From the NCBI GenBank assembly GCA_958496175.1, contig OY292278.1, positions 18,600,001 through 18,664,000 on the forward strand: a DNA stretch of 64,000 bases, in the 5' to 3' direction. Origin of the DNA: Sisyra terminalis (taxonomy: Eukaryota > Arthropoda > Insecta > Neuroptera > Sisyridae). Below are positions 14,324 to 64,000 of the stretch, piece after piece (position 1 is the first letter of the stretch; each line of letters starts with the position of its first letter). The notes under the pieces were generated by a model. The model made no database searches, was not told the origin of the DNA, and worked only from the letters and a program-made list of their open reading frames with translations. The position numbers and the translations under genes are program-made.

Positions 14324-14641
14324 AGGGCCCGATCAAAACTAGTTTTTTCAGCCTTTTTCTGAATCGAAAATGATACTTCGACTTCTCACTACGAGCGCTG
14401 GTATCGTTTTATCTTCCGTTGATAAGAAAAACGAATCTATACGATGTTTATAAGTGAGAGCGAGATAATAGAAGTGATTGATGTTTTAAACTTCGTATCG
14501 GTTCGTTTCTCCTACCGACGGAAGATAAAACGACGCCAGCGCTCGTAGTGAAAGGTCCGGTCCTACCATTTTCGATACAGAAAGCTTGGTTGGCTTTGGA
14601 CGCCAAGTATCGGCCGAAAAAACTAGTTTCGATCGGACCCT
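14324..14641. mobile_element. MITE with GGCCGAAAAAACTAGTTT-type ends
   Basis: The left end AGGGCCCGATCAAAACTAGT and the right end ACTAGTTTCGATCGGACCCT are inverted. The arms continue inward (CTACGAGCGCTGG / CCAGCGCTCGTAG). An 8-bp direct repeat TTTCCTGT flanks it (14316-14323 and 14644-14651, the right copy two bases off), consistent with a hAT-type target duplication. A frame at 14486-14719 is only the palindrome read through. Confidence 0.65.
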
Positions 14642-19744: not shown

Positions 19745-20552
19745 GACACGTAGAGGATTGTACCGAAAAAAATTTGTTTCTAATTTTAACCCAAAAAAAG
19801 TTATGAGCGATTTTGTGAATGCACTTATTCCATTGAATATAGAGTTTTCCGGTTACTACGGATTTTCCTTGAGAGATTTTCCAAACCCAAGAGCGGTTCA
19901 ATCTAGCTACTGTGCCGCTGAGGATTGTACCGAAAAAAGGATTCTTCTAACTCTATTCCAACGGTTGTTATAAAGGATTTTGTATGAGTAATTAGACTCT
20001 AATTACTCTATTGTTGAAACAGTAAAAACGGCCATAACTTTGAATCTATTGAGGTACTTACTAATCTTTTTGCGGATTCTCCCGGGTGCTGGTCTCTAGT
20101 CGATGAAACCAGTTGAATTTTAGTTTCTACCTCAACCGGAAAGAAAATAGAGTTTTTCGGCTAGTACGGATTTTCCTTCAGAGATTTTCCAAATCCAAGA
20201 GCGGTACAATCTAGCTACTGTGCTGCTGAGGATTGTAGCTAGATTGTACCGCTCTTGGATTTGAAAAATCTCTGAAGGAAAATCCGTAGTAGCCGTAAAA
20301 CTCTATTTTCTTTCCGGTTGAGGTACAAACGAAAATTCAACTCGTTTCATCAACTAGAGACCAGCACCTGGGAGAATCCGCAAAAAGATTAGTTTGTACC
20401 TCAATAGATTCAAAGTTATGGCCGTTTTTGCTGTTTCAACAATAGAGTAATTAGAGTCTAATTACTCATACAAAATCCTTTATAACTACCGTTGGAATAT
20501 AGTTAGAAGAATACTTTTTTTGGTACAATCCTCAGCGGCACAGTGGCTAGAT
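19745..20552. repeat. Palindromic element with GATTGTACCGAAAAAA units
   Basis: The left arm (about 19904-20219) and right arm (20235-20552) are long inverted copies separated by about 15 bp, each about 315 bp and highly similar. Upstream, 19755-19915 is a diverged direct copy of the left-arm module: it starts GATTGTACCGAAAAAA and ends in a CAATCTAGCTACTGTGCCGC block. It is a foldback-type element; small open frames inside it are not genes. Confidence 0.75.
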
Positions 20553-41900: not shown

Positions 41901-44900
41901 AAGACTTGATTATGCAAAAAACGATTAGTCTGAGAAAAACTTACAATTTGCTCTTTTTTGTAGAACATTCAATTTCCTCTAAGAATATATGTTGTTTAAG
42001 ACTTGATAGTTCAAAAGTTTATGGAAAAAAATCACTTTGAATCAAAAAATCAAAAATTACGATGATAAACTTGATAATATAAATATTGAAAGCTCAAAAT
42101 TTCAGAATATTTTTTTATCTTCCTGAATAATAATTTTTCATAGGAAGCTAAGTATATCTTTAAAAAAAATAATCAATTTTTTGACGCTGCCTAATATATA
42201 CATACACAAATTTTTCCACATTGGCAGAAAAAAGATTTTAAACTTGTCGGTTAAAATTACCAAAGGGTTTTCTTAAGAACTTATATATTGAAAACCTCTA
42301 ACTTCCGTATTTTTTGTCGCACTTTTTGTGGTTTTTGGTTAGTCTAAGCTTTATTTGGCTGGGGGTTTTCCGCTTTAGCAAAAAAAATAATTTTTAAATG
42401 AATCTAGACTAACTTATTTCAATGGTCTTTCCATTTTGCTAATGTTTTATTCAAGTCTTAATTTCTTGAATCAATGGAGCAAAAGTTTCTTAAGAATTTT
42501 GCTCGAATTTCCCAAATATTTCATTTCCCAATATATATATATATATATATATACATATATATAATATATATATATATATATGTATACATATATAATATAA
42601 ATATATATACATATAAATAGTTTTAACTGGATTAAAAATCAAAAACCACCCCTAAAGATGAAATCAAATCAAGAATAGGCCTTGGTGCAAAAAAAATAAC
42701 TTATAGATAAAATTATGACTGTACTACTATTAATAAAAAAAAAATTCTGATCAAGAAAAATGTTAATTATACATAAATATTTTTCTCTTGTTATGAGAAA
42801 GTATGATCAAATAAAAAAATCCTATTAATAAGAAAATGATTTTTCGTCTTATCAAAGAAGCAGAATGACTAATTTCGTAAGCGATTGTCTGATTTTTTTT
42901 ATTTAACTATTCATAATTATATATACTTATAAACAATTGGATTATATTATATTTTATTTCTATAATCTTTTAAACTTTCTCATTATCAGAATCTTTGTAG
43001 TTTTATCTACACGGGTGTTGCTTAATAAAAAACCACATGAGCAATTTTTAAGATTCAAATCTACTTATGAATCATAGTTTTCTATTGAAACTATAAAGCA
43101 TATAAATTTCTGTAAATTTCATTCTATTATATTATACATACATCTGGTTAGATATAAAAAGAAATTATTAATTTGAATAATCGGAAATATTGTCATAAGA
43201 ATTCTGTTGGAAGAATTTATTACAAATTGAACCATTACATTGTTTTAATTAATAGTAATTAGATTTACAGAAGAATCTTATACAAATAATGTCTTAGGTG
43301 TTTTTTTATTATTTTTATTATAACGCTTTATTAATGAACTGCACCAATAAAAGTGCGATTTTCATAATGTTTACAATATTAAATAATAGTCAACTTTAAA
43401 CATACAAATAAAGGCAATATTGAAAACAAGAAATACCTAAAGTAATTAGTACATAATTATTTGCATATTTTTGAAATGCACCAAAGAGGTCAACCTTGAA
43501 AAATTAATTATTCAAACAGATCAGTTTATATTAGAATTTCAAGTCGGAAGTATCAATCGCCATACAAGCAACCATGAAAACTGATTTACCTTTTTTCTTG
43601 TTTTATTCACCTTCGGATAATTTCTTTTTATGATACTACGTAAGAAAATTACATTTTTCTTTGTTTATGTACGTAGATTTGTTTTTTTTTCTTTTGTTCT
43701 ATAGTTTTAAGTGTAATCTACGAAACATAATTACATATGTGACGTAGGATGACAAAGGCTATCACATCATTTAGAATTTGATTTCCGAAAGAAAATTATG
43801 TTTTTCCGTTTTACTTCAGCATAGTTTTTTCTTTCATGTTTATAATTGTCTAAACAAATGCAAGTTTTCAGTGCTTGTAAAATAGATTCATAGCAATTCT
43901 TGTCATTTAATAAAGTATCCTTCCCTCAAAGTTATTATTATTTTTCCCCCAGTTTCATGTTCAATACTTCTGTGATCTGTCTTTTTGAAGACTCTTTTTT
44001 GCAATGCTTTCGTGAATGTAGTTGTTGCAATTGTTCTCCACTTTGAAGGAATTACCCCCTTGTACCTCAAAAGTTATTTTTCAAATACAGTAAGATCCCG
44101 TTTTCCGCGGAGGATACTTCCCAATAAGTTCCAGCGCTAAACGAAACAGCGTTAAACTAGGCAACTTCATACGTACATAAATATGTGATTAGCATCAGTG
44201 AAAACTTTTTTTTTGTTTCATTTATTTTGTAACATTTGTTGTTATATCCTTCTGAATACATCGACTATTGAATTATTTATTCCTAATATGGAATTGTATT
44301 CATAAAACATTCATGAAGATAAAAAAAGTTCGAATAAGGATCTAATGATTACGACAAAGAAGTGTCTTCTTTATTTTATATTCTTAATTTTTAATTTTCT
44401 AGTGGATACTGGATACCATCTAAGGTTGTCTGTCTTTTCCTATTTCGTTCAGCAAGTAGTTGTCGATAACAAGATACCGCATCATTGATCTTGCCTTTGA
44501 ACTTCTATAAAAATTTAAATTCTTTTGTTCAAATTGATCCATAATTTCCATTATAGTAGATATTTTTTTTTTTTGAAAATCCGTCGAAAGTTCCCTTTGC
44601 TTTCTCGTCTTCAGAAACACTAACTTCGTCATCTTCGTGTACTTGTTCTCAACAAGGTACGAAATAAATTATAAGCAATTCTATTTAAAGATAATCATTT
44701 TTTTGTCTATCAAAGATAGTGGACTTTAGAAATAAGGAAAATTTCTTCGGTTTGAAAGTGGTTAGGTTGTATTGATTTAATCATCAAAGAAAAAGGGATA
44801 ATTTTTTGTTAATTTATAATATTAGTTTTGATATCCATAAAATACAACTTGGCAGAATATTATTGTTAAATTTGTATGTAATTCCCTTGGCAATGTAGGC

Positions 44901-47900: not shown

Positions 47901-50900
47901 GTTTTATGTTTATATGCCTTTTCTTTTTTTACATGATAAATCCAAAATAGAAAGTAGGAGAAAAGTTCCCTTAGATCGATTGATATTTTATTGTATTCCT
48001 TTTGTCAATAAAAATAGCAAAACGTGATTTTAAGGTGAAACGATCCACTCTTCAAGGGGGTACATGGGTTTCACGGTTTCGAAGAATCGTTTTTTATTGT
48101 CTCATTAATTTTTACAGCATTTTTAAAATATTTTCCTTAATTTTCAAGTTGATCCGAGTAATAATTTCAGAGATACAGCCTTGGAAATATATCAATGTAG
48201 CTGTTCGTCTATTTTCGCGTTTTTCTCGAAACTATGTTTTCAAAGTCGGTTGTCAAGATTTCCCGAGAACTACTCAACCGATTTTGATAAAATTTTACGC
48301 AGGTCTTTGAGATACAATTCACAAGGACTTGGACGAAGGATTTTTGTTGTTTTTTTTTTTACAGTTACAGTTATTTAAAAAACAAAAAATGTATAGTAAA
48401 TTTCACCAAAATTTGCATATTTTTGTAAAAAGGTTTACCAAAAATCCAATTATCACTTGTTTTTCCTTCGTCTAAGTTCTAGTTTAGGGTCTTATCTAAA
48501 ACACGTATTTTTTTCACTTTGGATGATCCTATCAATAGTTCTGCTGTCAATGCGAACACACCTTTTTTCCGGAGAATCATCGGAAATAACACCGCATTGG
48601 CGAAATTTTAAACATTTTTCTACGAAAATTTCAGAAATTCTTTATCAAATGTGTATCTTTAAGAAAGTAAAAGTTTAAATAAAATAATTCCTGTTTTATA
48701 TGGAAAAAATTGATGAAAATTGGCCGTTTTTCCTCCGATTACACCCATATAACTCCTTAAGTCTATCTTCACTAATCGGGTTGAATTTCTTTAAACCTTA
48801 ACTGGTTATAGCCAATCGAAAATCCAGAACAATTTGAACTAGCAATCTTAGGAAAATTAGTCAAAACTAAGTTACGGGAACCTTTGGAAAACCCAGTTTG
48901 AAATTTTCCTAAAACGAGTGGCGTATCAAGATTTCGAGCTTATTTCAAGCAATTCGACGATAATTCAAAATATACTGTAATACATTTTTCAATCATCGAA
49001 AAATTGAAATAAATGTTTTGTTCGAAAAATCATAAATAACGTTTTTTTTAACTAGCGGATGTGCTCAATTTAAGAGGGTTCTCCCGTGTGATATGTTTAT
49101 AAAGTCGATTTTTTTTACATAAATTACTTCCTTAACATGTCTTGATTATGGAGGTAGAGGGATTTTTTTTTTTAAATTTATAGTCATTTGAATGATACAG
49201 TCATTACAAAGATACCAAAGTAGTTATAATATTAATCCTACTTGAAACTTTAAACGTGGATTTCCCTAACTACGTTTTTCTAACTTGTTTCCATGATACC
49301 TCGAAAACGGTTATACCGACGGACTTCTAATTTATAGGGTAGATTAAGCACATGTAGATACTTGGAATGATCTAAAATCGGTGAATAATTCTATCGAATG
49401 TTTCAATTTTTTTCTATTATAAAAACATAGAAAAAAACCATTAAATTGCAACTTTGTCTTCAGAAATCTTCCAAAAATTCAATTTTCCTTATTTTCAATT
49501 GATTCTAGTTCATTCCGGTCTTTTAAACTTGTAGATGAACTTGTAGATTAAAACGTCGGTTTTTTTTTACTTGAGATTAGACAATAATCACCCAAAATCG
49601 TAAAGACAGAAGGAAGTTCATTTTTTCGGAACGGGTGTTTTTGGAGCCTTATAACTCTCATTTTACAGGAGATTTTAGGCTAAAAAATTATATAAATACA
49701 CTTTAAATAAATATATAAAATGATATATAAATATATACAAATGATGAAAAACTCCTTAAAAAGCAGGCCATCACACGGGAGAAACCCTTTAAACTTCATT
49801 GTAGAAAACTCGATTAAGATTTACCGAACTCAATTGAGTTTATCAAAAATTGTGATGAAACATATATTAAAATGCACAAAAATTATATAGATTCTTGGTA
49901 GTAAATCTCAGTTTCTAAAAATTTAAACTTTTTAACAGAAAAGTGAAACCTGTTACCATAATTGAACTGACGAAATAAGTAACTGATGAGTGTAAAATAA
50001 GAAAACAAAAATAATCTTAATAACTAATATTACCAATGATGCTTAATTATTTAAGTCGGCACCAAGAAATAATTAAGATATTTAAAAAAATGTTGAGTAT
50101 TCTCAATTTCTTTCTCAATTTTCATCATTCTGTACTTCAAGTAATTGAATTATTTGCTTCATTTTTGGGTCTCCGCTTAAAATTTATTAGTTTTATTGAT
50201 TTGAAACTTGGGTGCTTTATTATCAAAATAAAAAATAATTTTTAGTTAAAAAGTTTTTCTATTTTGTTCTTAATTTAATTCACAAATGAATCGACCATAA
50301 TGAAAATTTAGCAACAGAACAGAAAATTATACGATGTCAGAATTGAATTAATAATAAAATCGTGAAGTGAATTATAAACAAAATAGAAAATGAAACTTTA
50401 CCAGATAGTTCAAAAGTGTCAGTGTCATTTTTTGATTAAAAAAGTTTCAGCAGAAAAAAGAAATATTTCTTAGATATATATGAAATGTTATATCGTCATA
50501 AATCGTTATATCGTCGGCCTGCTAAATCCATTTTTAATCACTTTTTTTTTAGTTTTTTGTTCCATTTGGTAGGGAATACATAATTCTATCGAGTGATAAA
50601 CTAATAAATCAATTTGCAAATAAAAATTTCAAAATATAACATGAAACGAAAATCTGTTTTATGTACTAACTTATGTAGCCTGTATTCCCTTTTTTCGTTC
50701 TCCTATAAAATTTGTTATAATGGACTTAGCAGGTTAACACTTTTGGCTGATAATATCTTAAATTCCAAAAGAAAATATTTTTTCTAAATGTTGTTTTTTA
50801 TTGTTTAGAGATGACAAACTAGAAGAAGCAATAGCCAATATAGTGGACGCATATAGTATTGATATGAATCTACATGCCAGCGTTTACCTCGGAAAAGACA

Positions 50901-53375
50901 CACGACCCAGCAGTGTAAAATTAAGTAAGGCTGCGATAGATGGAATATTAGCATTAAAAGGCAAACCATTAGACTTTGGCATCGTCACAACTCCAATGTT
51001 ACACTATTTCGTAAAGTGTCGAAACACGGAAGGTGACTATGGTGATCCCACTGAAGAAGGCTACTTTTACAAGTTGATAACAGCCTTCAAGAATATTCGA
51101 GGTAATGACTACAATCGTGAAAAATACGTAGCACGGTTACTTTACGACGGTGCCAATGGAGTAGGAGCGAAAAAAATCAAAACATTCCAAGAAAGACTTG
51201 GAGACTGTTTACGAATTGAAGCTTATAATGACGCGATAATTGGTAGTGGAAAATTAAATCATCATGTATGTTGTCTTCATGATTAAATTTTTCAAAGTAA
51301 CTAAAGATTAATTAATGTTTTAGTGTGGAGCAGATTTTGTGAAGACTCAACAAAAGAATCCGGAAGGTCTCCCAATCGAGGCTTTTGCGCGTTGCGTTTC
51401 CGTCGATGGGGATGCTGATCGAGTTGTGTATTTTTATACCGACGCCGATGGAAAGTTTCATTTACTTGATGGAGATCGTATCGCAACTTTGATTGCCGAC
51501 TATATTCAGGAGCTACTGAAAGTTACCAAATTAGATCTAACGTTAAGTTTGATTCAAACCGCGTACGCCAATGGGGGATCTACTGATTATATCATAAACG
51601 AATTGGTTTGTACAATTACATTCCATCCTTAATCTATTTACTATCTGTTATTGTTTTGATAGAATATTCCAGTCGCATGTGTTCCTACAGGAGTGAAGCA
51701 TTTACACCGCAAAGCGCAAGAGTCTGATATTGGGATTTACTTTGAAGCCAATGGTCATGGAACGGTCATTTTTAGCGATAATGCACGATCGCAAATTAGT
51801 GTCGCTGCTCGAGATGAGAGGTAATAAAAGTAGTTATTACGAAATAATTTTCTATGACCCCAATAAAAACTTTAACTTAAACAAGTCGTTAGTTCATTGA
51901 TTATTCATAACTTAGCAAGTATGAGCTATTGTTTGATTTTTAACTGATGATTTCGTTCGTATTCCAAAACTGAACTCATACTTTTACATCTGAGTCGAAA
52001 TATTCAAGGATTATATTAGACGTTTGCGCTACGTTTGCAGCAGTTATGCAAAATGAAAAAATGCGTTAGTAGCACATTTGCAACAGATCTATACAAAAAT
52101 GCGTCCGCATGTTGTTATTATCGGTTATTGGGAGATATCTCATCTTTTTGTGTTATTAAAAATATGAAATTAAAATTATTTTTATCCGTTTGCAACATGT
52201 TTGTACAGGTATTGTTACAATTTTACGACAACTGCCACTTTTTTATATTTTTTGTCGACCTGCTGCAAACGCAGTAGAAACTAACGTAAATTTCATAGAC
52301 CTGCTGCAAGGCTAAACTGTGCCTTAAAGAGTATAATTATACAGTGCGAAGGTACGTGATATTTTCATAATTGTGTCTACAAATCCGCTGCAAACGTAGT
52401 GCAAATTTCAAAATTTCAACTTGGGTCCGAATGAATACATTTAAAAATTCTTATTTATTCTTTTACAACGGGTTTCTATAGGTATTGTTGCAATTTTGTG
52501 ACCTTTTTCTATATTTTGTCGGCCTGCTGCCAACGCAGTCCAAACGAACGTAAATTTCATAGATCTGCTTCAATCCTATAAATATACCAAGTATAAATAT
52601 AATAGTATAAAAAATATGTATATACCAAGCCTTAAATAATATAACTATACTGTGCAAACGTGGTGTTAACACAATTGTGTCTGTAAAACCGGTGCAAACG
52701 TGGTGCAGACTTCAAAATATTTTCTTTACGAATTCATTCGTCCTAATTTTATATTCGATTTATAGACCACTTTTACGAAAAACTAACACATCTTTGGTTT
52801 ATAAAAGTAACAATAGTTTTAAAATTCGATATTTTCACTATTTTTTTCTTCATTCTAGCGTCAATGATACTGAACAAAAAGCAGCACAGCAACTATTATC
52901 GTTAATGGATGTAATTAATGAAACTGTAGGTGATGCAATTTCCGACATGTTACTAGTCGAAACTATCCTTCATGCCAAAGGATGGGATTTACGTCAATGG
53001 GAAGCAATGTATGTCGATCTTCCAAACCGTCAACTGAAAGTTGTTGTCAAAGTAATCATCCTTAATTGCATAAATAGAAAAATCATTGACTTATTTAACT
53101 TAATTACTGTTTCCTAGGATCGAAATGCAATTGTAACCCGAGACGCCAATCCAAAAGTAGTGAGTCCCAGTGGATTACAAGACGCAATTGATGCTCTCGT
53201 CGAGCAGTATCCCAGAGGCCGAGCCTTCGTACGTCCCTCAGGAACGGAGGAAATTGTTCGCGTTTATGCTGAAGCCGAAACTCAAAAGGATTGTGATGCT
53301 CTTGCAGCGAAAATTGCCTTGAAAGTGTATGAAATGGGTGGCGGTATCGGTGCACCTCCCGAAGTTCCAAATTAG
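35936..53375 (+). CDS. PGM3: Phosphoacetylglucosamine mutase (PGM3/AGM1)
   Basis: This cytosolic alpha-D-phosphohexomutase interconverts GlcNAc-6-P and GlcNAc-1-P on the route to UDP-GlcNAc, which feeds chitin, glycans and GPI anchors. Eight exons join in phase: 35936-36036, 47048-47118, 47278-47407, 50809-51265, 51324-51605, 51663-51820, 52859-53051 and 53118-53375, giving 549 residues, close to the human length of about 542. Key sites are intact: substrate entry YGTAGFRA, active-site phosphoserine loop [12 protein letters not shown], metal loop [11 protein letters not shown], sugar-binding [11 protein letters not shown], and phosphate-binding [16 protein letters not shown]. The start is MAGLYRTV, the first Met before the conserved region. 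Intron 1 is 11 kb and repeat-laden, intron 3 is 3.4 kb; the others are short except for 1 kb in intron 6. Confidence 0.95.
36704..36880 (+). repeat. tRNA-derived SINE, copy 2 (best preserved)
   Basis: The head has box A TGGTCGAGTGG and box B GAGTTCGATTC, as in a Ser/Leu-type tRNA, then a non-tRNA tail with CGATTACGGATTTTTATTAA, CTCAAGACCTTAGTAGTTAT and ACAGCGACGGTAAATA and an A-rich end. The tail matches 29970-30165 and 45345-45470. Confidence 0.8.
37180..37676 (+). repeat. Imperfect tandem duplication in PGM3 intron 1
   Basis: Two units (about 37180-37437 and 37457-37676) share ACATGCATTTTTT, CACTAAATTGAAAGG, TTCCCGTG(T/C)GGGTGAACT and TTTACAGACTT(G/A)GTTGTATA. The second is shorter. Non-coding. 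Confidence 0.65.
37768..37992 (-). CDS. Small unrecognised ORF, antisense in PGM3 intron 1
   Basis: A 74-codon minus-strand frame starts [20 protein letters not shown] and ends [10 protein letters not shown]. It is Lys/Arg rich, has no signal peptide or membrane segment, and its composition looks more protein-like than nearby chance frames. It may be a fragment of a transposon-encoded protein. I recognise no family and see no splice partner. Confidence 0.25.
   Translation of the reverse strand: MDESNQYRRTIKKKIVDQGIATKANWLNHIFKGEGPTSVFVGLKRTKKNQILDHLQRGMNNPDLKHLIKDRKRR
38461..38625 (-). mobile_element. hAT-like MITE, copy 3 (inverted)
   Basis: Read on the minus strand it starts ATTGGTTCTTACCCTGGGTT and continues through CGAACCCCAAGGGTTCGG with duplicated GGTTCGG(C)GAGTCAGTCTCG steps. 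It matches the modules at 2365 and 4667. Truncated. Confidence 0.55.
38838..39070. repeat. Inverted repeat with hammerhead-like cores on both strands
   Basis: Arms 38850-38925 and 38926-39003 are near-perfect inverted copies (ending in ATTCAATTAGCTACGTTTCG and complement). Reading minus from about 38925, CTGATGA, GTTACG/CGTAAC stem and GAAACG form a hammerhead-like core; the plus copy has CTGATAA, a core mutation. The outer part (39045-39070, GCTGAGATCTGAATTTTATC) recurs inverted at 40370-40395, so 38838-40500 is a larger inverted structure. Confidence 0.6.
40462..40496 (-). ncRNA. Hammerhead ribozyme-like core
   Basis: On the minus strand CCTGATGAAGTTAC, loop, GTAACGAAACGTAGC. CUGAUGA and GAAAC flank a GUUAC/GUAAC stem II. 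One extra A sits before the stem. Same family as 38893-38960. Confidence 0.4.
40793..41312. repeat. Inverted repeat pair with CCTGAGGAAGGCTC cores
   Basis: The left arm (about 40793-40910) and right arm (about 41185-41312) are inverted copies: each has an ACAAATTCTCAGAGGACT end and a GAGCCTTCCTCAGGCATTCA block. Each arm carries CTGAGGA, a GGCTC/GAGCC stem and GAAACG(T), at 40846-40882 (-) and 41204-41240 (+): a hammerhead-like core. Confidence 0.65.
41345..42125. repeat. Long palindrome in PGM3 intron 1
   Basis: The inner arms are almost identical: GCTCTACAAAAAAGGTCTCG with TAGCATTTTTCGATAAATAC and CACTTCATTCAAAG (41649-41700) are inverted at about 41725-41792. Outward pairing continues with more mismatches to about 41345 and 42125. 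The 66-codon frame at 41768-41968 lies in one arm and is not a gene. Confidence 0.75.
42528..42618. repeat. AT dinucleotide microsatellite
   Basis: Runs of TA interrupted by TACATA and TGTATAC, about 90 bp. Confidence 0.9.
42620..44085. other. PGM3 intron 1, nothing recognised
   Basis: AT-rich intronic sequence without a recognisable element or frame. Confidence 0.4.
44088..44665 (-). pseudogene. pogo/Tigger-like transposon relic, 3' end
   Basis: On the minus strand, broken frames around 44660-44400 read [19 protein letters not shown] and [17 protein letters not shown], and near the end [11 protein letters not shown], resembling the C-terminal part of Tigger/pogo transposases, which often ends in a ..QT(S/T)LD.. 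motif. At 44088-44130 the sequence ACAGTAAGATCCCGTTTTCC with GCGGAGGATACTTCCC and GCGTTAAACTAGG looks like a Tigger-type terminus. The catalytic core is absent. Confidence 0.45.
45345..45470 (+). repeat. tRNA-derived SINE, copy 3 (internally deleted)
   Basis: Box A CTGGCCGAGTGGTCACGG is clear, box B is missing, and the tail (GAGTTGCTAAAAACCTTGGT, TTATAAAGCGACG, A-rich end) matches the other two copies. This copy keeps the better box A. Confidence 0.7.
45480..47040. other. PGM3 intron 1, nothing recognised
   Basis: AT-rich. Near 45520-45660 there is a weak inverted arrangement of AAGATA.. /..TATCTT blocks. It ends at a polypyrimidine tract and the exon 2 acceptor at 47046-47047. Confidence 0.4.
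47408..49068. other. PGM3 intron 3, proximal part
   Basis: No gene recognised. Several open frames (48002-48310, 48457-48678) lack domains. A degenerate CTGATCAAGACGCTAGTCTT motif on the minus strand near 47515 vaguely resembles the hammerhead-like family but lacks GAAAC. Confidence 0.4.
49069..49792. mobile_element. Non-autonomous TIR element in PGM3 intron 3
   Basis: The left end TTTAAGAGGGTTCTCCCGTG (then TGAT) and the right end ATCACACGGGAGAAACCCTT (then TAA) are imperfect inverted repeats of about 24 bp. The element is 724 bp with no coding frame. Confidence 0.65.
49793..50808. other. PGM3 intron 3, distal part
   Basis: AT-rich with no element recognised; it ends at the acceptor before exon 4. 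Confidence 0.4.
52015..52715 (+). repeat. Tandem duplication in PGM3 intron 6
   Basis: Two diverged units, about 280-290 bp apart, share GGTATTGTT(A/G)CAATTTT, TCG(A/G)CCTGCTGC(A/C)AACGCAG, CGTAAATTTCATAGA and AATTGTGTCT(A/G)(C/T)AAA. A GCTGCAAACG/GGTGCAAACGTGGTG word is repeated several more times. Non-coding. Confidence 0.65.
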
Positions 53376-54404
53376 TCATATATTTTCAATATCTTAAAGG
53401 AATTGCTTTTAAGGGTGGATTTGATTTACGCATGCGATTTGAAAGAAATTACTACTTTAAATGGTGCAATTTAGATTTAATTTTTTTTTATCCTAGAATT
53501 TTACTTAAATGAACGTAAACTGCCAATCAGGGAACCAAAAATCGATCTTTTATCTATTCCTAATACAATACATTTCACATTTTAAAAAATACATTCCAAT
53601 AGACCGGACAAGACAAAAAATTATATGTTTTACTTTCCATTTACAATTTTTTACATTCCGTTCGCATCACCACAAAGCTTCACCCCAATTGTTTGGAACT
53701 GGAAGATCGATTTTATAAATTTGTATTAACTTTTTTTAATGCTCAACAATTTTTTTTACAATTTATTTAAATTTATTTTATTTTGCTCAATTTTGTATAG
53801 AATAGCCTTTTCTTAATTTAAGAATGCTTGACACGTTTTAAATGAAGAAAGTTAATTGCTTAATTAATTAGATTTTAATGAATGCACAAATTGATTTGTC
53901 GTTGAACATATTCGAATTTGTTGTGGCAAATGATTGTTATGCAAATTATGTGTGTACACAATCCCAAATTGTAAGCTTATTGTGAGCTTATGTAGACCTT
54001 TAAGATTAAGGATTTCATTTGAAAATTCTTTATAAAATTATATTTAACTACGTTGTAAATACTTGATGTAAGTAAAAACGTATCGAAAATTATGAAAAAA
54101 AGCATTGACTTTCTGAAATAAATTGTGCGACCACTACCATTTTAACTAAATTTAACAGGCAGCATTTAATAAATCTGAATCAAGCCCTTTTTAAAAAATC
54201 ATATATCATTTTATAACAAAATAATTAATATATATGTATAATATATGAATTTACTTTCTAATAAATATATTTTAAAGTCTGTTTTTCAATTAAATGTTTT
54301 AATTTTATTTATTTTTTTTTACTGAAAAAAAGGAAAGAAATTTGGCGAGAAAAACCGTCCATGATACTGTTTTTTTTCCTAGAAAATTGGTGTATTCGAA
54401 GTTT
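53376..54404 (+). other. PGM3 3' UTR and downstream DNA
   Basis: AT-rich. CTGAAATAAATTG near 54115 is a candidate poly(A) signal; other AATAAA-like words follow at about 54260. No gene. Confidence 0.4.
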
Positions 54405-56285
54405 GGGAGCTGTTAAAAGTTATACTATACTTTTAACCGCCATGTATCAAAAAAGCCTATCTATAGGCGTAATATACCAAAGCCACCCATCTTAAACTAG
54501 TTACTACTATTTCGACCAGGTCTTGAACAAAACATACTCCTATTGGACCAAATTTGGTGTAAAAGGGATGATTTCGCATCACAATCATCGATTTAAACTC
54601 AATCAATTCACCAATACCATTGAGAACGACTGAATAAGAAACCCCCTTTCTTTTAGGGACGCTTTAATAGTAATTATTTTGTTCAGTTTCAGCGAAAGAA
54701 CCATCCCTTATATCCTTTTTATGCATTTGAAAATTGTCTTCTTTGTCTTCTTCTTCTTTTTTATATACCAACGTAAAAAATTTACCCTTAAAAGGAAATG
54801 ACATCGTTGCAATTACGGTAGTGGTTAGACAACCCTTTAGCCATCTCGTTTTATTTTTTCAAGGGTTTAGCCATTAAATGCAAATAAATTTTTGACATTT
54901 CGGTTAAGGACAATTAATTTTATGATATTCATTTCAATTTTGGCAAAAAACTATCCCTTATATCCTTTTTATTCACTTGAAAATAATCTTCTTTGAAACC
55001 TTCAAACGATATTGTGGGTGTCCTTTTGCACACAGGACAACCTTTTTTTTCATATTTTAAATCACGAATGGGTCTTATTTTATAAATCATCGAGAAAACT
55101 CACCTTAATCAGGAAAACTCATCCTTGCAATTATCCGTATTCTTACAAATTGTAGAAATTAGGCAACCCTTTATTCATATTTGTAATTGGGCTGCGGCAT
55201 AAGTTCCCTTATTTACAACGTAATGTAAATAGGACGTACGATTTGTTATTAAATCAATTTATTTTTATACATTCAACTAACCCGAAAATTGAGGATAAGA
55301 GCTGTTATTGGGGTTGAAGAAAGTATTATCCTGTTGGGTGATAATTGTTTAGTAAGTGCTAGTGTTATAAACACTTGTAAATATTGTTCTGATTAAATTT
55401 TTCATTACAGATGAAGTTGACTGAGGAAATTAGAGATTAATTCAATGGATTTGAATTGTTCATCATTTCCAAATGGACGTTTGAAGAATGGATGTGGATC
55501 ATTCGAGAATCCTCAGTCAAATTCCTCAAGGATATCATTTCTACAATTGGCAGCTACTGAGAAGAATTCGAATGGATTTACTACAATAGTTAGTGGTGTT
55601 AATTGTGTTTCAATAAATCAGTGAACGTGAAGTGATAAAGTGATTCAAGTGATAAATAATCAAAATATCAGAAAAAACAAAAGCTTTTCATTAACTTAAT
55701 ATTTCTATAAGATTATAACACTTACTACTTTCACATAGTTTATATAAACAATTGTAAATATGGAAAGAGCTGTTATTGTATTATTGTAGATATTTAATTG
55801 ATATTAAACGTTAATAAATTTATGTTAATAGAATACATTGTTTCAATTCGATTTTCCGCATCCATCTCCTTGAATTTTATATTTCAGAATTTTTCTTTTA
55901 TAGTAAGAATACATATAAGAGTTAAATTAATACAACGATTAAGGTAAGTAAGGGAGGTACAATAGGTTTCTCGTTAGATTATTGAATATTACGGTAAAAG
56001 CCAATATCGAACAATATCTTAAGCTTTCGTCCTTAATCGTCCTTATTTTACGTTTTATTTTATATATTAAAAAATTTTATTTTATGAAGAAATTCTATTG
56101 AAATACAAATTTGTTTTACGAAAAAAAAAGAATCAAGGACTTTAAAATGTTGCAATGTTTTTCGACAACTTTTCCAACTTTATGGTCAGGAAATTCTAAT
56201 CATTTCGATTGAAAAATTTTTCAATTTTCTACAAATCTCTTAAGAATTGTTTATATATGAGTTTTAACGTCAATTACATATATCA

Positions 56286-56356
56286 TATGATAGCCACATC
56301 GCTAAGGTCGCCGCCACTATCGGAGCTGAGATCCCTGGTTCGCATCCCGAAGGGGT
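56286..56356 (+). repeat. tRNA-like pol III promoter segment, left arm
   Basis: It reads GATAGCCACATCGCTAAGG, then GCCGCCACTATCGGAGCTGA, then CCCTGGTTCGCATCCCGAAG. GGTTCGCATCC is a good box B, TAGCCACATCG a weak box A, and spacing is tRNA-like. The acceptor stem does not pair well, so it is a tRNA-derived relic. Confidence 0.5.
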
Positions 56357-56552
56357 AAGTGTTTTTTCTTAAATATAATAATTGATTTCTATTCCTTACA
56401 GCTTACCATATCACTAATTAACATTAATAATTGTTACCAGACATTGTATCATCGAAATATTCGATCGAACAGTAGTTCCAACCTTTCGGGGTTGGAAATG
56501 ATCGATCGATGATGCAATATATTTTTCAATTTATTTTTGCTCTTTGGTTTTG

Positions 56553-56714
56553 TGACGTCACTCATTTTCATATATATGACGTCACACATACGTCGCCATC
56601 CAAAATGATGCCTTTCGAGGTTGGAAATGGATCGATCGAGCGATCGCTGAGTTATAAATTTTTTTTTAATACCGCATATGTGACGTCACTCAATGACGTC
56701 ATCAAATGACGTCA
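56553..56714. promoter_or_regulatory. Cluster of five CRE octamers (TGACGTCA)
   Basis: Exact TGACGTCA occurs at 56553-56560, 56577-56584, 56681-56688, 56694-56701 and 56707-56714. This octamer is the CREB/ATF full site. The matching part of the right arm (about 58083-58137) keeps only one exact copy, with several near-copies. Confidence 0.5.
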
Positions 56715-58347
56715 TTCCCCAAAAATGAGGGGGAGGATATCGAATTTTCGATTTTAGTAAAATAGGATTTGGTGTATGGCATAAGGATGATGCGGGAGGC
56801 TTATAAATCATATCCTTTTTTTGAATTTTTCATTTTTTTGGGGAAAATTTTTCGGCCAAATCCGAAAAAATCTGAAAAATTGGCCAAAATTGACACTTTT
56901 TTGCACTTTTTTCAACTTTAACGTCAATTTGAGCGAAAACTAACGATCGTAGGTTATCGATAGATAGCTTATTCTACAGCGCTTGAATTACTCTATCGAT
57001 GGTATAAATTTGGTCCCGGAAAAGCTTAAGGGGAAAAACTTTTTTTTTCAACGTTTCAGAAATTTCATTTCGTCGACCCGATGCACGTCGATTTTATAAA
57101 AAAAAAAAATCGAATATTTTTTAATCGAATTTTCCGATGAAATTCGCACCATAGCTACAGAATGTTACGAACAAAAACCCTATACCAAAAAATCTCAACT
57201 TTTCGATCTCTTTAATCGTTTTTTTAGATATTAAATATTAAAATGTTGTGACGTAACTTCATTTAATACATTTATGTTTTATGGTAAAAAAGGATCAAGG
57301 ACATTAAAAGTATGCAATGTGATTCAACATCTTTTCCGGTCTTAACATGGAGAACCTATGGTTTAAATTTTTCCGGAAAATTCCATGAAAATCGATCTGG
57401 TGAAACAGATTTGACCAAAAGGTTTTCTTGAAATTTTCCGGAAGTATTTTCACCAAAGCAGCTCCGTATGACGTTTGGAAAAGTTGTAGAATAAAATTGT
57501 GACATTTTAAGGTCCTTGATCCTTTTTCAAACAAAACAAATTTGTATTTAAAAAGTATTAGCTTGCATAATAGGTAAAATTTAAATATTGAAGAAACCAT
57601 AAACGATATCGAAAAGTAGAGATTTTTTTATGTAATGAACGTAACGTAATGCAGCTATGGTGTGAATTTCATTGGAAAATTTGACAAAAAATAATTTATA
57701 AAATCGACGTGCATTCGGTCGACGTTTTGAAATTTCTGAAAAATTAAAAAAAAAAGTTTTTTTCCTTAAGGTTTTCCGTGACCAAATTTACACCATCGAT
57801 AGAGTAATTTAAGCGCTATCGAATGAGCCTACAATCGTTAACCTACGATTGATAGTTTTCGCTACAAACGGCGTTAAAGTTTAAAAAAGTGAAAAAAATC
57901 TCGAAATATGGCAAATTTTTGGGATTTTTCAAAATTTTGGTCGAAAAATTTCAAAAAAAACCGAAAAAAATTGGCTATAGGATATGTTTTTTAGGCCTCC
58001 CGTTACGTAACTAAGCCATTCACAGAATCCTATTTAACGAAAATTGAAAATTCGCTCATTTTTCGAATTTTTTCGGGAATAACGTCATTGGATGGCGACG
58101 TATGTGCGACGTCATATATATGAAATTGAGTGACGTCACAAAACCAATGAGCCAAAATAAAATGAAAAATATATTGCATCATCGATCGATCGATCATTTC
58201 CAACCCCGAAAGGTTGGAACTACTGTTCGATCGAATATTTCGATGATACTCTGGTAACTCTGGTAACAATTATTAATGTTAATTAGTGATATGGTAAGCT
58301 GTAAGGAATAGAAATCAATTATTATATTTAAGAAAAAACACTTACCC

Positions 58348-58418
58348 CTTCGGGATGCGAACCAGGGATCTCAGCTCCGATAGTGGCGGCGACCTTAGCG
58401 ATGTGGCTATCATATGAT
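58348..58418 (-). repeat. tRNA-like pol III promoter segment, right arm
   Basis: The inverted counterpart of 56286-56356, with the same GGTTCGCATCCCGAAGGGG box B and TAGCCACATCG box A on the minus strand. Confidence 0.5.
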
Positions 58419-58791
58419 ATATGTAATTGACGTTAAAACTCATATATAAACAATTCTTAAGAGATTTGTAGAAAATTGAAAAAAAAAATCGATCGAAATG
58501 ATTAGAAATTCCTGACCATAAAGTTGGAAAAGTTGTCGAAAAACATTGCAACATTTTAAAGTCCTTGATCCTTTTTTTTCGTAAAACAAATTTGTATTTC
58601 AATAGAATTTCTTCATAAAATATTTTTTTTTAATATATAAAATACAACGTAAAATAAAGATGATTAAGGACGAAAGCTTAAGATATTGTTCGATATTGGC
58701 TTTTACCGTAATATTCAATAATCTATTATCTATTATTTATATCTATTATATTCAATAATCTATAATAAACGAGAAACCTATAGTGTCAATA

Positions 58792-59268
58792 ACACTAGCA
58801 CTTACTAAACAATTATCACCCAACAGGATAATACTTTCTTCAACCCCAATAAAACAGCTCTTGTCCTCAATTTCGGGTTAGTTGAATGTATAAAAATAAA
58901 TTGATTTAATAACAAATCGTACGTCCTATTTATATTACGTTGTAAATAAGGGAACTTATGCCGCAGCCCAATTACAAATATGAATAAAGGGTTGCTTAGT
59001 TTCTACAATTTGTAAAAAAACGGATAATTGCAAGGATGACTTTTCCTGATTAAGGTGAGTTTTCTCGATGATTTATAAAATAAGACCCATTCGTGATTTA
59101 AAATATGAAAAAAAAGGTTGTCCTGTGTGCAAAAGGACACCCACTATATCGTTTGAAAGTTTCAAAGAAGATAATTTTCAAGTGAATAAAAAGGATATAA
59201 GGGATGGTTTTTTTGCCGAAATTGAAATGAATATTAAAAAATTAATTGTCCTTAACCGAAATGTTTAA
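58792..59268 (+). pseudogene. Coding-like unit R1 in right arm
   Basis: From 58792 one frame reads TLALTKQLSPNRIILSSTPI. After broken frames (IARMTFP) an ATG-started frame at 59068-59268 reads KKGCPVCKRTPTISFESFKE, then DNFQVNKKDIRDGFFAEIE. Unit R2 (59420-59977) encodes the same order of peptides. A CxxC (CPVC) could bind metal. The full unit is not open: stops and shifts separate the blocks. I recognise no family. A GTGAGT donor-like site at about 59053 lies just before the 59068 frame. Confidence 0.45.
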
Positions 59269-59419
59269 AAATTATTTGCATTTAATGGCTAAACACTTGA
59301 GAAATTAAAACGGGAAGTTACGGAGGTGAAAATGCGTGCACTAAAGTACGCCTTAAAATTGGTCGTTTTCGAAGGGTGACTTTTCCTTACAAGGACATAT
59401 TTTATAAACGGATTATAAA

Positions 59420-59977
59420 ACAATGTCCTTACGTGAATTGGAAATGATGAACAATTCAGAAACAATGATTAATTTTCGGTTGTCTTCGGTCAGCATCCTA
59501 TGTAGTGAAAAATTCATTAGAACAATATTTACAAATTCCAAAAACACTAGCACTTTCTAAACATTTATCTCCTAAAAGGATGATATTTTCATCAACTCCA
59601 ACATAATTATTCTAGACATAATTTTCCAAGTAAGTTAAAACTGTAAAAATGTAAAGATTATAAACAATAAAACAATTCATACGTCCAAGGTATATTTAAA
59701 TGAAAACAAGAAAATTTGGAGCGCAACCAAATTACATAGATGGCTAAATGGTTGTCTACCACTACGGTAATTGCAAGGATGTCATTTCCTTTTAAGGGTA
59801 AATTTTTACGTCGACATATAAAAAAGGACCCATTCGTGGACTGTATATGAAATTTTTTTTTCCTGTGTGCAAAAAGACACCCGCAATATCATATCAAAGT
59901 TTCAAAGAAGACAATTTTCAAATGCATAAAAAGGATATAAGGAATGGTTATTTCGCTGAAACTGAACAAAATATTTA
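59420..59977 (+). pseudogene. Coding-like unit R2 in right arm
   Basis: Blocks in order: IGNDEQF; then at 59505-59603 an open stretch with LEQYLQIPKTLALSKHLSPK and RMIFSSTPT; then VIARMSFPFKGKFLRRHIKK with DPFVD; then 59856-59977 with FPVCKKTPAISYQSFKEDNF and QMHKKDIRNGYFAETEQNI, stop. Compared with R1 most changes are conservative or synonymous (S/T, R/K, E/Q, F/Y, N/D), suggesting past selection on protein. Frames are broken between blocks. Confidence 0.45.
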
Positions 59978-60189
59978 ATATTAAAGCATCCCTAAAAGAA
60001 AGGGGGTTTCTTATTCAGTCGTTCTCAGTGGTGTTGGTGAATTGATTGAGTTGAAATCGATGATTGTGATGCGAAATCATCCCTTTTATACCAAATTTGG
60101 TCCAATAGGAGTATGCTTTGTTCAAGACCTGATCGAAATAATAGTAACTAGTTTAAGGTTTTGGTATATTACGCCTATAGATTTTATTT

Positions 60190-60980
60190 TCTAAAAAGGG
60201 TGAAATCAAGGACAGGAAAAGTGATTGATACAGGACACACTTCAAGTAAAGAAAATGAATACTAAATAAGAATTGGTTATGAAAAAACAAACACATATTT
60301 CTTTACTGATATTCTATTGACTATAATAAATGATTTTTACAAATAAATGTTACTTTATGGTCATTGTTTGTTATTATAGCAAAATGTCTGAAATTATATA
60401 GTTCTCGATTGTACCATTATTTAACAACAGTGCCGTTTTCTTTTGAAAATTCGACAATGATTGTAGAAAAAAATTCCGATTGATTTTCTTTAAATTTTCC
60501 AATAATATTCGAACAACAGCGGTTTAATCAGGATTTTCAATCAAGAAAAATAAGACCTACCTATTGTGATTGTACTAACTACCCTTCTATGTATTTGAAT
60601 AGTAAAAAACTTCTGAAATAAAATTTCCAAGATTGTGGGATTCAAATTGAATTAAAACAAAGTATTCTATAAAAACAAACAATTTATTGATGTTGATGAT
60701 CAATAATTTTTAAATATACAAAACAATGTATACATGGATTCTTTGAATATTTACAATAGTTTTTATAACTATCTGTATTTAATTATTAACTGTTAAGCTT
60801 ATATAAAATAAATACATTTAAATTTAATAATGGATTTTTTTTTATACTTTATTCACTTATCACTAGATTCACTTAAACACTTAATGTTCATTGATTTACA
60901 GAAGCACTAATTTATATCACTGATTTTAGTAGTTAATCCTTGCAGGTCCTTTTCGGTATCATTTCTGCTAGTTATAATCT
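60190..60980. other. No gene recognised
   Basis: AT-rich flank of the palindrome. The part next to 60985 may belong to the neighbouring coding-like relic. Confidence 0.4.
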
Positions 60981-60984
60981 TAGT

Positions 60985-61104
60985 GAATTTGATTGTTGAT
61001 TTCCACTTGAGTTCCACAAAAATCCATTTGGAGACGATGAACTATCTGAATTGATTGAATTATTTTCTGAAGTCTTCTTGATCGACCACTTCCATTTGTT
61101 CTAA
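60985..61104 (+). pseudogene. Diverged relic of the palindrome's coding family
   Basis: The + frame reads EFDC, stop, FPLEFHKNPFGDDELSELIE then LFSEVFLIDHFHLF, stop. It aligns with the minus strand of about 55425-55530 in the left arm (EFD, stop, GFSNDPHPFFKRPFGNDEQF, KSIELISNFL). PFG(D/N)DE and IEL.S are shared. It lies outside the palindrome, so the family has at least one dispersed member. Confidence 0.4.
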
Positions 61105-61109
61105 AAAAT

Positions 61110-64000
61110 TCAATTAGAAAAATTTAGATGCATTGGAAATCTAAATAACAAGTACACTGACCAGTTAACTAGTCATCCAAAATGATGATAATTTTTTCAA
61201 CGCACAAAAGTTGTCCTTTTCGAAGTACTGATAATTAATATATCTGCAAATAAATTTATTTTAATTATTATAAACCATTATGTAATAGGGATGAATACAT
61301 TATGAAAACTTACTTGAAATTATTTATTAATTCCATCTTCCAGGTCAAACAGCATTACAAAGGATAGAAAAAATAACTGTTGAAGAAAAATCTTTTGAAT
61401 AAATATTCAGTTTCCGTATCCCTAAGAAACACTTAGGGTTAACAACTATTTCGATATAAGCTCGATCAGCTATTAAAAATAAGTGCAAAAATAAATTACT
61501 TTTCACATTTGTGCATCATTTCTTATGGTATTTTTCAGCAGCTTAGTTGCCATTGTTGATCTTTCGACATTGTTAATGTTTTTATCTATATGCAACCCGT
61601 TGAGCTTAAATAACAAAACTTAAGCAAAAGAGCTTTTGACCGCATTAATTTTAACCACACTCGAAAGTGGTTAGATCGATTAGACAATGAAAACGCCAAT
61701 GATGTCAAACTCTACTTTTTTGGACCACTTGATACGACAGGAAAAAATTAATGAGGCCCATTTCCCGTTTTGAGCATATACTCTTTTTTTTTGTACTCAA
61801 AAACCAAAGAATGATATTAAAAAATTATTCCCAGTAGAGTAATTTTTGCAATTGTTTGTAAAATTTTCAACTCCTCAAATTTGCAAAGTACCTACTTACG
61901 TATAATAACAAGTCTGGTAAGGCGTAAAAACATTGAACTTTGGACGCAACTGCCACAAATGAATACATTACTGTTGTAAAACAGTATAATTCAATTAAAT
62001 TTAACGGACATTTTTCGGAAATGTTTTTTCGTTGTATAGGTTATTAGTTCAGATATTATCAAAATATGATGATAGTTTTTCTCACCATTTGCCAAAAATT
62101 ATCGTTGAATAAAAGGTCCTCAACTCCCAACGTAACTGTTGTAACAGCTTTTTGAACCAAGAAATAATTCCTTGGGAATAAAAAATTAAAAATTCATCAA
62201 TTTCAAAAAAAATATAGGCTTGTATTGCGTTATTTTTCCTTATAAGAGTAACTTATTTGGACAGTGGATGATGGAAAATCCTGCGGAAAAGATTTTGATC
62301 TCTGGGTAGGAGATTGATCACCATTCCTCTCCATACTTCGAAAACACCAATTTTCAGGATAAGAAAGACATTATAAGCGGGTTTTTCTCGCCAATTTTCG
62401 AATAATTTTATTTTCAATAAAAGCTTATATCTGAAAATAATAATTACAAGGAAAAAAAGTATTAGAAAAACAGGCAACAAGCATTTGATTTACAATTTTT
62501 GTAAGGGAAAATGAATAATACAAATATGATACACAGCAAAAAATTTTCACATTTTTCTTTATTTTTTCTTGAAATTTTACATATGCCGCACCATTAAGAC
62601 CATAAGTAAATAAATGAAAAGTAATTGCAGCATGAGTAGTTGGTCTTAAAATTTCAATAATATTCTACCACTAATAATTATAATAAAACATTAAATGAAA
62701 TTACAAAATATGTTTGTTAATATATATTTTAATAATAAGGTAATTAATAATATAATGAGTAATATAAACGAAAAGAAACTCCATTTTTCCAATCACATGG
62801 AAAATCGATCAATATTTTCTATCGGAAAAAATAGCATTTTTTTTTTTTTTTTTTGTTAAATATACGACCAAATATAATATAGAATAGAATATTTATATGT
62901 GAATAATAGCGTACTATATCCTTATTTTTACTCGTTTTTTATGAATAATTATTTAGAAGAAAAAAATATCAAATTTTTCTTAATGAACTTGTAATTATTC
63001 TGGATGATAACGAGTTTTCCACAATTTAATTAATTAATTAATAACTACGAACGAAATTAAAACACATAGTTAAACAATGAAAGACAAAGGCAAAATTATT
63101 GTGAAAAATACTATTTATTTTTTTATAAAGTGAAACTTCTTAAATTATTTAAGTTCAACATTTTTTATTAATCAATTTCTTTGAAATCAAAAAAATAAAA
63201 ATATAATACAATTCTTGACCGCACTATGTGCACAAATGAGGCCATCATCTCAAGTTTTAAATAATTTCCTTTGACTATATTATAATTAGTTCATTTAGCA
63301 TATTGTCTAAAACATTCTGGCATTTGAATTTTCAGAAGAAAATATTTGTCTCTATTTGTGTATTGAAATCATAAGAAGTTTCACTCTCTAAAATGGATCA
63401 TCAATTCATAAATCATAACATACTAATTATATTTTGCTTCTCTAATAAATTTGAATTATTAATTAATGGACATATTTGTTAATTCCTTTGAATAAGTATT
63501 TTTACATTATTTTTAATGTAATTTTCACTTTAGTGACTTATCAATTCAATTGTAATAGTTACCTAAATTTTATTTCTAGTCGTTAAGTTCGGTCGTTTTA
63601 TTACACATTCATTGTCTTGCAGTGTCTCTGATACAATCAAAAAATATTATTAGCCACTTAGTTAAACGGCTAGTCATTACATTAAAGGCAAAATAAAAAT
63701 TATTTAATTTAACTGTTTTTTGTATTTTTTAAAAGTAGATTAACAAAATTTTTCAAGTAAATTGATTCCAAAAAGTACTATTTCCTCTTTTTCATTTAAC
63801 TATGTATATAGTTTTACCGAAAAATTTGAACAAGTTATTTGAGAAACTTGCTAATAAAAATAAATTCTAGATTTTTAGAGCTATATTTGTTGCCTATGTT
63901 TAAATGATTACATTTGTTTTAGTTTGAATAATTCTAGCCGTTCAACTAAATAACTAGCCATCCGATTAAATTCTGCAAGATCATGACAGAAATGAAAGTT
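61110..64000. other. No gene recognised
   Basis: AT-rich DNA with poly-T (62838-62855) and no frame with a known domain. A minus-strand frame at 62253-62480 is not recognised. Confidence 0.45.

What the first reader, a model, noticed from the sequence alone, without database searches (positions are those of the whole stretch)
54405..60181. 5.7-kb near-palindrome of unknown class
Two arms of about 2.8 kb are inverted around 57407. Each carries a terminal module, two tandem coding-like units, a tRNA-like pol III promoter and, in the left arm, a CRE cluster. No transposase, reverse transcriptase or known terminal motif is visible. It could be a new foldback/Polinton-like derivative, an inverted duplication of a gene fragment array, or a hairpin RNA source (siRNA/piRNA).
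Basis: partly seen in the sequence, partly recalled or inferred. Interest (0 to 1): 0.75.

Follow-up and report, generated by a model that had tools for sequence, protein, structure and literature searches.

The report
Decayed palindrome from a satellite-armed family
This beetle sequence is a worn-out, internally shortened copy of a family of large mirror-image DNA loci, flanked by tandem repeats that run in opposite directions and strung at even distances along parts of a few chromosomes; what the even spacing is for is unknown.

Summary
The near-palindrome is real (window 54459-60182, axis about 57407). It is neither a lone foldback nor a gene-fragment array, but a degenerate member of a noncoding family with at least 69 loci in this 377-Mb beetle genome. 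Twenty fetched relatives share one anatomy: tandem satellite or linker on the outside, then a palindrome (best arm alignment 88-99.8%) whose halves each hold an older 2.2-kb hairpin (arms L and R, 30-31-nt loop). In 16 of 20 the two halves are sisters in a tree, which points to arm-to-arm gene conversion. The window copy fits one internal deletion of about 2.7 kb, leaving one hairpin (73%) between the main arms (91-95%, 225 bp at 100%). The hairpin's inner side is conserved: L is 93% identical between C4 and C5, R 80-82%; pol III A box, B box and T-run in 39 of 40 copies, CRE sites in 42 of 42. On C4 the loci are evenly spaced (mean 0.45 Mb; 0 of 20,000 random placements as even), from an incomplete list. 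Nearest known: macro-dyad satellite arrays of Tribolium, and the Tetris foldback. No transposon ends appeared at four array edges. Function is unproven.

The parts
54459..60182 (.). the whole near-palindrome as aligned between the arms
   Evidence: self-blast and arm alignment
54411..54535 (+). outer module: a dispersed repeat found on several chromosomes away from this family; only part of it (from about 54459) is mirrored in the right arm
54860..55126 (+). remnant of the 340-bp satellite monomer, left arm
   Evidence: about 70-72% to the arrays of L019; also matched by the array samples L045, L046
59032..59454 (-). satellite remnant, right arm (more than one monomer)
   Evidence: 74-77% to L019 arrays
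59775..59991 (-). second satellite remnant, right arm
   Evidence: 75% to L019 arrays
55127..55950 (+). linker between satellite and hairpin, left arm (its mirror in the right arm is cut down to about 58782-59031)
   Evidence: 68-83% to the linkers of relatives where a hit was found
55978..56603 (+). Co, outer hairpin flank, left; holds a degenerate tRNA-like promoter (B-box-like motif 56337-56347) and CREs at 56553 and 56577
   Evidence: 66-93% to the outer Co of relatives, 69-72% to their inner C'; motifs
58088..58725 (-). Co, right copy (B-box-like motif 58353-58363, CRE 58131)
   Evidence: 95.1% to the left Co; motifs
56603..56610 (+). join of Co to the tail of C': proposed deletion junction
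   Evidence: relatives read Co-R here; window left reads Co-C' tail-L
56610..57391 (+). C' tail plus hairpin arm L; CRE triple at 56681, 56694, 56707
   Evidence: 91-94% to L of all 21 fetched relatives
57392..57422 (.). hairpin loop, 31 nt
   Evidence: 30-31 nt between R and L in the fetched relatives
57423..58080 (-). hairpin arm R
   Evidence: 75-90% to R of relatives, 74% to L
60555..61261 (-). a further, older copy of the linker outside the palindrome, right-arm orientation
   Evidence: 64.6% to 55251-55949; 67% to the linker of L019 over 60581-60958

Best explanation
The feature is a decayed, internally deleted member of a family of noncoding satellite-armed palindromes. SHOWN: a full-size locus reads satellite> linker> Co> R> loop L< C'< spacer C'> L> loop R< Co< linker< satellite<. 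The two halves of a locus are mostly far closer to each other than to other loci. The window copy has one hairpin and a join that fits one deletion from the end of the left Co to inside the right C'. The inner side (C' plus L) is conserved and carries a pol III-type promoter and CREs. The loci known so far are evenly spaced in three chromosome territories. INFERRED: arm identity is kept by gene conversion between the inverted arms of a locus; satellite arrays expand outward on both sides and so keep opposite orientation; new loci arise by recombination or copying of a locus rather than by a transposase acting on fixed ends; the window copy lost its spacer and its pol III promoter, and its arms have drifted apart by 5-9%.
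For: Anatomy in 20 of 20 double-hairpin loci; nested palindromes; opposite satellite orientation on both sides in 17 of 21 fetched relatives; halves of one locus are sisters in 16 of 20; Co/C' join in the window against Co/R in relatives; the left and right Co of the window are 95% alike although Co and C' are 69-72% alike; L conserved, R not; pol III boxes 39 of 40 inner copies against 0 of 44 exact A boxes in outer copies; CREs 42 of 42; copy number and spacing; R of the window groups with C4 loci although it lies on C5, so loci or pieces do move between chromosomes.
Against: Four of 20 loci (L010, L011, L021, L027) do not pair their halves; L021 arms are only 88% and the outer arms of L013 only 82% alike. 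The other single-hairpin locus, L049, is not explained by the same deletion: both its arms join C', an order absent from the 20. No reads, no transcripts, no second species. The outer module at 54411-54535 is not part of the family elsewhere.
Confidence: 0.68

Rival explanations
1. A non-autonomous foldback DNA transposon of the Tetris kind: long terminal inverted repeats that contain tandem repeats, moved by a transposase encoded elsewhere; the satellite is an internal expansion.
For: Discrete loci in ordinary DNA; inverted arms with internal tandem repeats and a variable middle, as described for Tetris (PMC4079207: abstract and section 10 read); copies on six contigs.
Against: Four array edges of two loci stop at monomer positions 85, 44 or 137, 178 and 92 (85 and 92 are close, but belong to different loci) in flanks without shared sequence beyond short A+T-rich matches; the arm ends printed for 12 loci show no common terminus that I could see; spacing is far more even than random.
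Confidence: 0.17
2. The single-hairpin form is the older one, and double-hairpin loci arose later by inverted duplication; the window is an ancestral-type copy.
For: Simpler form; a second single-hairpin locus exists (L049) with its own arrangement; foldback priming is known to make inverted duplications (PMC10622511, seen in the search listing only).
Against: In the window L is joined to an outer-type Co that is 95% like the other Co, although Co and C' are 69-72% alike in relatives, with a sharp join at 56603. Neither of the two single-hairpin loci has flanks and arms as diverged as L and R.
Confidence: 0.12
3. Assembly artefact: inverted chimera.
For: Palindromes are prone to misassembly; no reads were available.
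Against: Arms differ by 5-9% in the window with private indels; 21 other loci have their own arm differences.
Confidence: 0.03

Closest known systems
Macro-dyad symmetries of TmSat1/TmSat2 satellites in Tribolium madens (PMC13081366; read: abstract, Results section 7, first part of the Discussion)
   Same: Beetle satellite arrays that reverse orientation around conserved inversion sites, giving palindrome-like structures of kilobases to tens of kilobases.
   Different: There the inversion site is a modified satellite subunit inside multi-megabase arrays; here it is a separate 6-8-kb nested palindrome with pol III boxes and CREs, and the arrays are short and sit at discrete loci in ordinary DNA.
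Tetris, foldback transposon of Drosophila virilis (PMC4079207; read: abstract and section 10)
   Same: Long inverted repeats with internal tandem repeats that grow into satellite arrays, variable middle, no coding capacity.
   Different: Tetris has flanking terminal domains and 8-10-bp target duplications; none were found here. Tetris has no nested hairpins or even spacing described in what I read.
Tyba centromere units of Rhynchospora (PMC10954556; passages only)
   Same: Discrete satellite loci (median 17.4 kb) at even distances (median 355 kb).
   Different: Those bind CENH3 along whole chromosomes in a plant; here there is no CenH3 data, and the loci known so far fill parts of a few contigs.
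Palindromes of mammalian sex chromosomes with arm-to-arm gene conversion (PMC8981503, search listing only)
   Same: Arms of one palindrome more alike than the divergence between loci would allow.
   Different: Those carry genes (recalled); these are noncoding and occur at many loci.

Membership tests
Macro-dyad satellite arrays | satellite arrays in opposite orientation on the two sides of a turning point | tested here: met
   17 of 21 fetched relatives; in the other 4 the stretch shows an array on one side or none. Window: degenerate remnants only.
Macro-dyad satellite arrays | conserved inversion-site sequence | tested here: met
   same order of hairpin pieces in 20 of 20; centre spacer found at 40 loci, all 40 scored candidates
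Macro-dyad satellite arrays | embedded in megabase satellite regions | tested here: not met
   17 of 20 samples along C4:42.70-43.27 Mb lack satellite; the 3 that match lie beside loci
Foldback transposon (Tetris-like) | inverted repeats with internal tandem repeats and a noncoding middle | tested here: met
   (window region)
Foldback transposon (Tetris-like) | fixed terminal domains and 8-10-bp target duplications | tested here: inconclusive
   not found at 4 array edges of 2 loci nor by eye at arm ends of 12 loci; outer ends of the other loci were not reached
Polinton/Maverick | DNA polymerase B and integrase genes | tested here: not met
   no Pfam match at E<=1 in six frames of window 54301-62402
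Repeat-based polycentromere/holocentromere unit | discrete satellite loci at regular distances | tested here: met
   three territories, from an incomplete list and with territories chosen after seeing it
Repeat-based polycentromere/holocentromere unit | binds CenH3 | not testable with these tools
   no chromatin data
tRNA gene or tRNA-derived SINE | pol III A box, B box and terminator | tested here: met
   inner C' copies of relatives: 39 of 40, one A-box mismatch allowed (34 of 40 exact). Not met in the window's own Co copies: no A box
tRNA gene or tRNA-derived SINE | tRNA fold recognised by standard models | tested here: not met
   ARAGORN 0 in 21 loci; no Rfam tRNA at E<=1 in the 6 of 21 loci scanned

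The most novel reading that the evidence does not exclude
The full-size loci are discrete, evenly spaced chromosomal units of a new kind: satellite-armed nested palindromes whose conserved inner side (pol III unit, CRE array, L arm) marks each one for a chromosome-scale job, such as seeding CenH3 domains of an extended (metapolycentric) centromere, meiotic pairing sites or domain boundaries, in territories of C4, C5, C6 and C3. The window copy would be a dead unit left outside such a series.
Probability: 0.13. Interest if true: 0.9.

Novelty: new variant of a known kind. Interest (0 to 1): 0.62.

Why it matters
Inverted satellite arrays with conserved turning points have been described in Tribolium beetles, and their purpose is open. 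This family gives about 70 turning points in one assembled genome that are discrete, alignable and set in ordinary DNA, with a conserved arm and a drifting arm only 31 bp apart, so a function for the turning point can be tested directly. The even spacing, if it holds on a complete list, is unexpected for a transposon and resembles the centromere units of a holocentric plant. The window copy itself is only the relic that led there.

Tried and rejected
Transposon or virus genes inside: no Pfam, Rfam or tRNA match in the window region; no protein homologue for one coding-like stretch; 11 pattern stretches in viral contigs, none confirmed; no phage DNA match for 56200-56620. The coding hypothesis rested on two blocks with p=0.003 and on peptides read by eye; it was dropped once the units proved to be satellite and linker. 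MIR774 and mir-1012 matches in L049 lie far below their gathering scores and sit on the hairpin axis: rejected.

My first idea, one-step foldback copying of the left arm, was replaced by the deletion account after the relatives were seen. My second, megabase satellite blocks flipping at each locus, was rejected by sampling.

The pair counter (12 of 20 for L, 8 of 20 for R) returns nothing for pairs without a support value, such as L026, which is drawn as a pair; I use instead. The first A-box expression was wrong and gave 0; corrected. Species not identified: transferrin 2 is closest to non-beetles (50-52%) while a PGM3 exon is closest to fireflies and a click beetle (63-65%); I follow the second because its best named rows are beetles.
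Full report
THE OBSERVATION. The inverted structure is there. Blast of the region against itself gives arm pairs 54459-54745/60182-59903 (93.0%), 54756-54846/59826-59738 (91.2%), 54844-55375/59315-58782 (95.0%), 55975-56603/58725-58088 (95.1%) and a self-inverse core 56676-58119 (73.5%). A base-by-base alignment shows the step in identity at 56603/58088 and private indels in both arms. The window holds at least five other self-inverse stretches of 0.2-0.8 kb, so hairpin-shaped repeats are common here; none of them matches this one in the window-against-window blast.

FIRST DEAD ENDS. No Pfam family at E<=1 in six frames of the region, no Rfam or tRNA match in the window, no homologue in the protein, viral or phage searches that I made. 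The genome search was busy for a long time.

THE FAMILY. When the genome search answered, the window proved to be C5:18,600,001-18,664,000 of a 376.6-Mb assembly in 11 contigs, and the left arm had 205 matches (24 of 1839 candidates scored, so a lower bound). I fetched twenty 10-kb stretches (L009-L028) and later a twenty-first (L049, C6:37.91 Mb). The best self-inverse alignment of each of the first twenty is 88.1-99.8% identical (L021 lowest; in L013 the outer arms are only 82% alike), and each half contains an older inverted repeat of about 2.2 kb at 69-78% identity. Mapping the window's pieces on them gives one order in 20 of 20: R> L< ... L> R<, with outer flanks Co, inner flanks C' and 30-31 nt between R and L. 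Outside lies a linker (no linker hit over half length in L011, L020 and L023) and then a tandem array of a 340-bp satellite, or in five loci a second satellite, in opposite orientation on the two sides in 17 of 21 relatives; in L011, L022, L023 and L024 the stretch shows an array on one side or none. Window 54860-55126, 59032-59454 and 59775-59991 are remnants of the 340-bp monomer, and 55127-55950 is the linker.

HOW THE WINDOW COPY AROSE. In the C4 relatives that I printed, the end of Co (ACGTCGCCATCCAA) runs into R, and L is flanked by C'. In the window the left Co runs at 56603 into the tail of C' and L, while the right side reads L, loop, R, Co as usual. One deletion from the end of the left Co to inside the right C' (2917 to 5592 on L019, about 2.7 kb) turns a double-hairpin locus into the window form. 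It explains why the outer arms, Co included, are 91-95% alike (225 bp at 100%) while the core is 73%: the outer arms are the main palindrome, the core is one ancient hairpin. L049 is also single-hairpin, but both of its arms join C' rather than Co, and Co follows a piece of C' on one side only; the same deletion in the same kind of parent does not explain it.

CONCERTED ARMS. In a tree of L+loop+R from 42 hairpins the two halves of one locus are sisters in 16 of 20; L010, L011, L021 and L027 are the exceptions. The centre spacer matches at 40 loci, 72-98% in the best match of each apart from the query itself (40 candidates scored). So the palindrome probably formed once, and the arms have been homogenised within loci since. 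Gene conversion between arms is the natural reading; it is inferred.

ONE SIDE IS CONSERVED. L is 93% identical between C4 and C5 loci (94.7% within C4); R, 31 bp away, is 80-82% (92% within C4). Of 782 L columns 469 are invariant in 42 copies, with no codon period (28, 32 and 36 variable columns by phase). Total tree length is 0.78 for L and 1.74 for R; C4 loci group together in the L tree with support 0.835, which speaks for constraint more than for exchange between chromosomes, but weakly. C', next to L, carries an A box (exact TGGCNNAGTGG in 34 of 40), a B box 33 nt downstream and a T-run: 39 of 40 with all three in order if one A-box mismatch is allowed. The outer Co copies have an exact A box in 0 of 44 and a B box in 18 of 44. 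At least two TGACGTCA sites sit in the first 140 bp of L in 42 of 42 hairpins, three or more in 35. The window has lost C' apart from its tail, so its 'tRNA-like promoter' is the degenerate outer version; its CRE triple is intact. As single-stranded DNA the window core folds into one long hairpin (-353 kcal/mol; no shuffles are made at that length).

NUMBER AND SPACING. A 25-base L pattern with up to 2 mismatches occurs at 67 forward and 67 reverse places, reversed-pattern control 0 and 0. Of the 100 places listed 44 form (-,+) pairs within 7 kb, 1 is a (-,-) pair, and 10 stand alone in the list. With the other searches this makes at least 69 loci: C5 32, C4 21, C6 7, C3 7, C1 1, C2 1; some, among them most of those on C3, rest on a spacer match only. 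Gaps are even: C4 42.79-51.36 Mb, 20 loci, mean 0.451 Mb, CV 0.34, 0 of 20,000 random placements as even; C5 4.74-12.23 Mb, 13 loci, CV 0.49, 99 of 20,000; C5 44.73-51.62 Mb, 12 loci, CV 0.43, 60 of 20,000. The territories were chosen after seeing the list, and the list is incomplete. Loss of close neighbours by recombination could also space them out. Between loci lies ordinary DNA: of two samples searched, one is unique but for a 38-bp match and one is a common foldback repeat seen on C1-C7. Of 20 samples along C4:42.70-43.27 Mb, 3 match the satellite, all beside a locus.

IS IT A TRANSPOSON. Four array edges of two loci (about 15 and 26 kb in all) stop at monomer positions 85, 44 or 137, 178 and 92, in flanks that share nothing beyond short A+T-rich matches. 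The arm ends printed for 12 loci show no common terminus that I could see. The window's own outer module (54411-54535) is another dispersed repeat. So the layout is Tetris-like, but a defining feature of that class was looked for and not found in the few places that I could reach.

COMPARISON. Macro-dyad satellite arrays with conserved inversion sites are described in Tribolium madens (PMC13081366: abstract, section 7, first part of the Discussion). Tetris is the nearest transposon that I found (PMC4079207: abstract and section 10). Evenly spaced satellite loci of about 17-20 kb at about 0.36-0.40 Mb are the centromere units of Rhynchospora breviuscula (PMC10954556: passages). A review of metapolycentromeres names Tribolium castaneum (PMC11492452: passages). 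Six literature searches listed no description of a nested palindrome of this kind by title or abstract start; I cannot name the species, and most subscription papers are not held. Host: a beetle by PGM3; transferrin 2 is less clear.

VERDICT. Observation confirmed; identity settled with fair confidence as a relic of a family of satellite-armed palindromes; maintenance by arm conversion likely; function open. The family deserves more interest than the copy in the window.

Noticed in passing
window 19901-20552, 40784-41302, 41347-42122, 38815-39032, 14356-14583: Five other self-inverse stretches (73-94%), 0.2-0.8 kb, probably ordinary foldback MITEs; no match to the 57-kb palindrome in the window self-blast and no shared ends with it in the printed flanks.
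   Followed up: partly
window 33745-34094: A second copy of the outer module of the palindrome (matches 54338-54612, reverse) between transferrin exons; the module recurs on C1-C7, in L052 (C2:1.68 Mb) as several copies in both orientations.
   Followed up: partly
window 54300-54406 and 62331-62439: A 72% inverted repeat outside the palindrome, with an old linker copy at 60555-61261 between; may be the trace of an older, wider inverted layout.
   Followed up: partly
L041 (C4:43020000-43020799): A foldback repeat with arms of about 0.27 kb in very many copies (2075 first-look candidates, 40 scored) on C1-C7, showing no restriction to territories.
   Followed up: no
C5:4738689 and C5:4742138: The only (-,-) neighbour pair of L arms in the 100 listed places; a rearranged locus.
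   Followed up: no
L049:3603-6216 (C6:37.91 Mb): Single-hairpin relative whose arms join C' on both sides, an order not seen in the 20 double-hairpin loci; one side holds a C' fragment followed by Co.
   Followed up: partly
L010, L014, L016, L018, L020: The same palindrome is flanked by a different tandem repeat (unit about 186 bp and multiples), also inverted on the two sides: two satellites use one turning point.
   Followed up: partly
window 12532-13218, 30985-34654, 50762-53372: Host genes: a neuroligin-like exon (recalled from its look, not searched), transferrin 2 exons and phosphoacetylglucosamine mutase; the palindrome begins about 1 kb past the last of these exons.
   Followed up: partly
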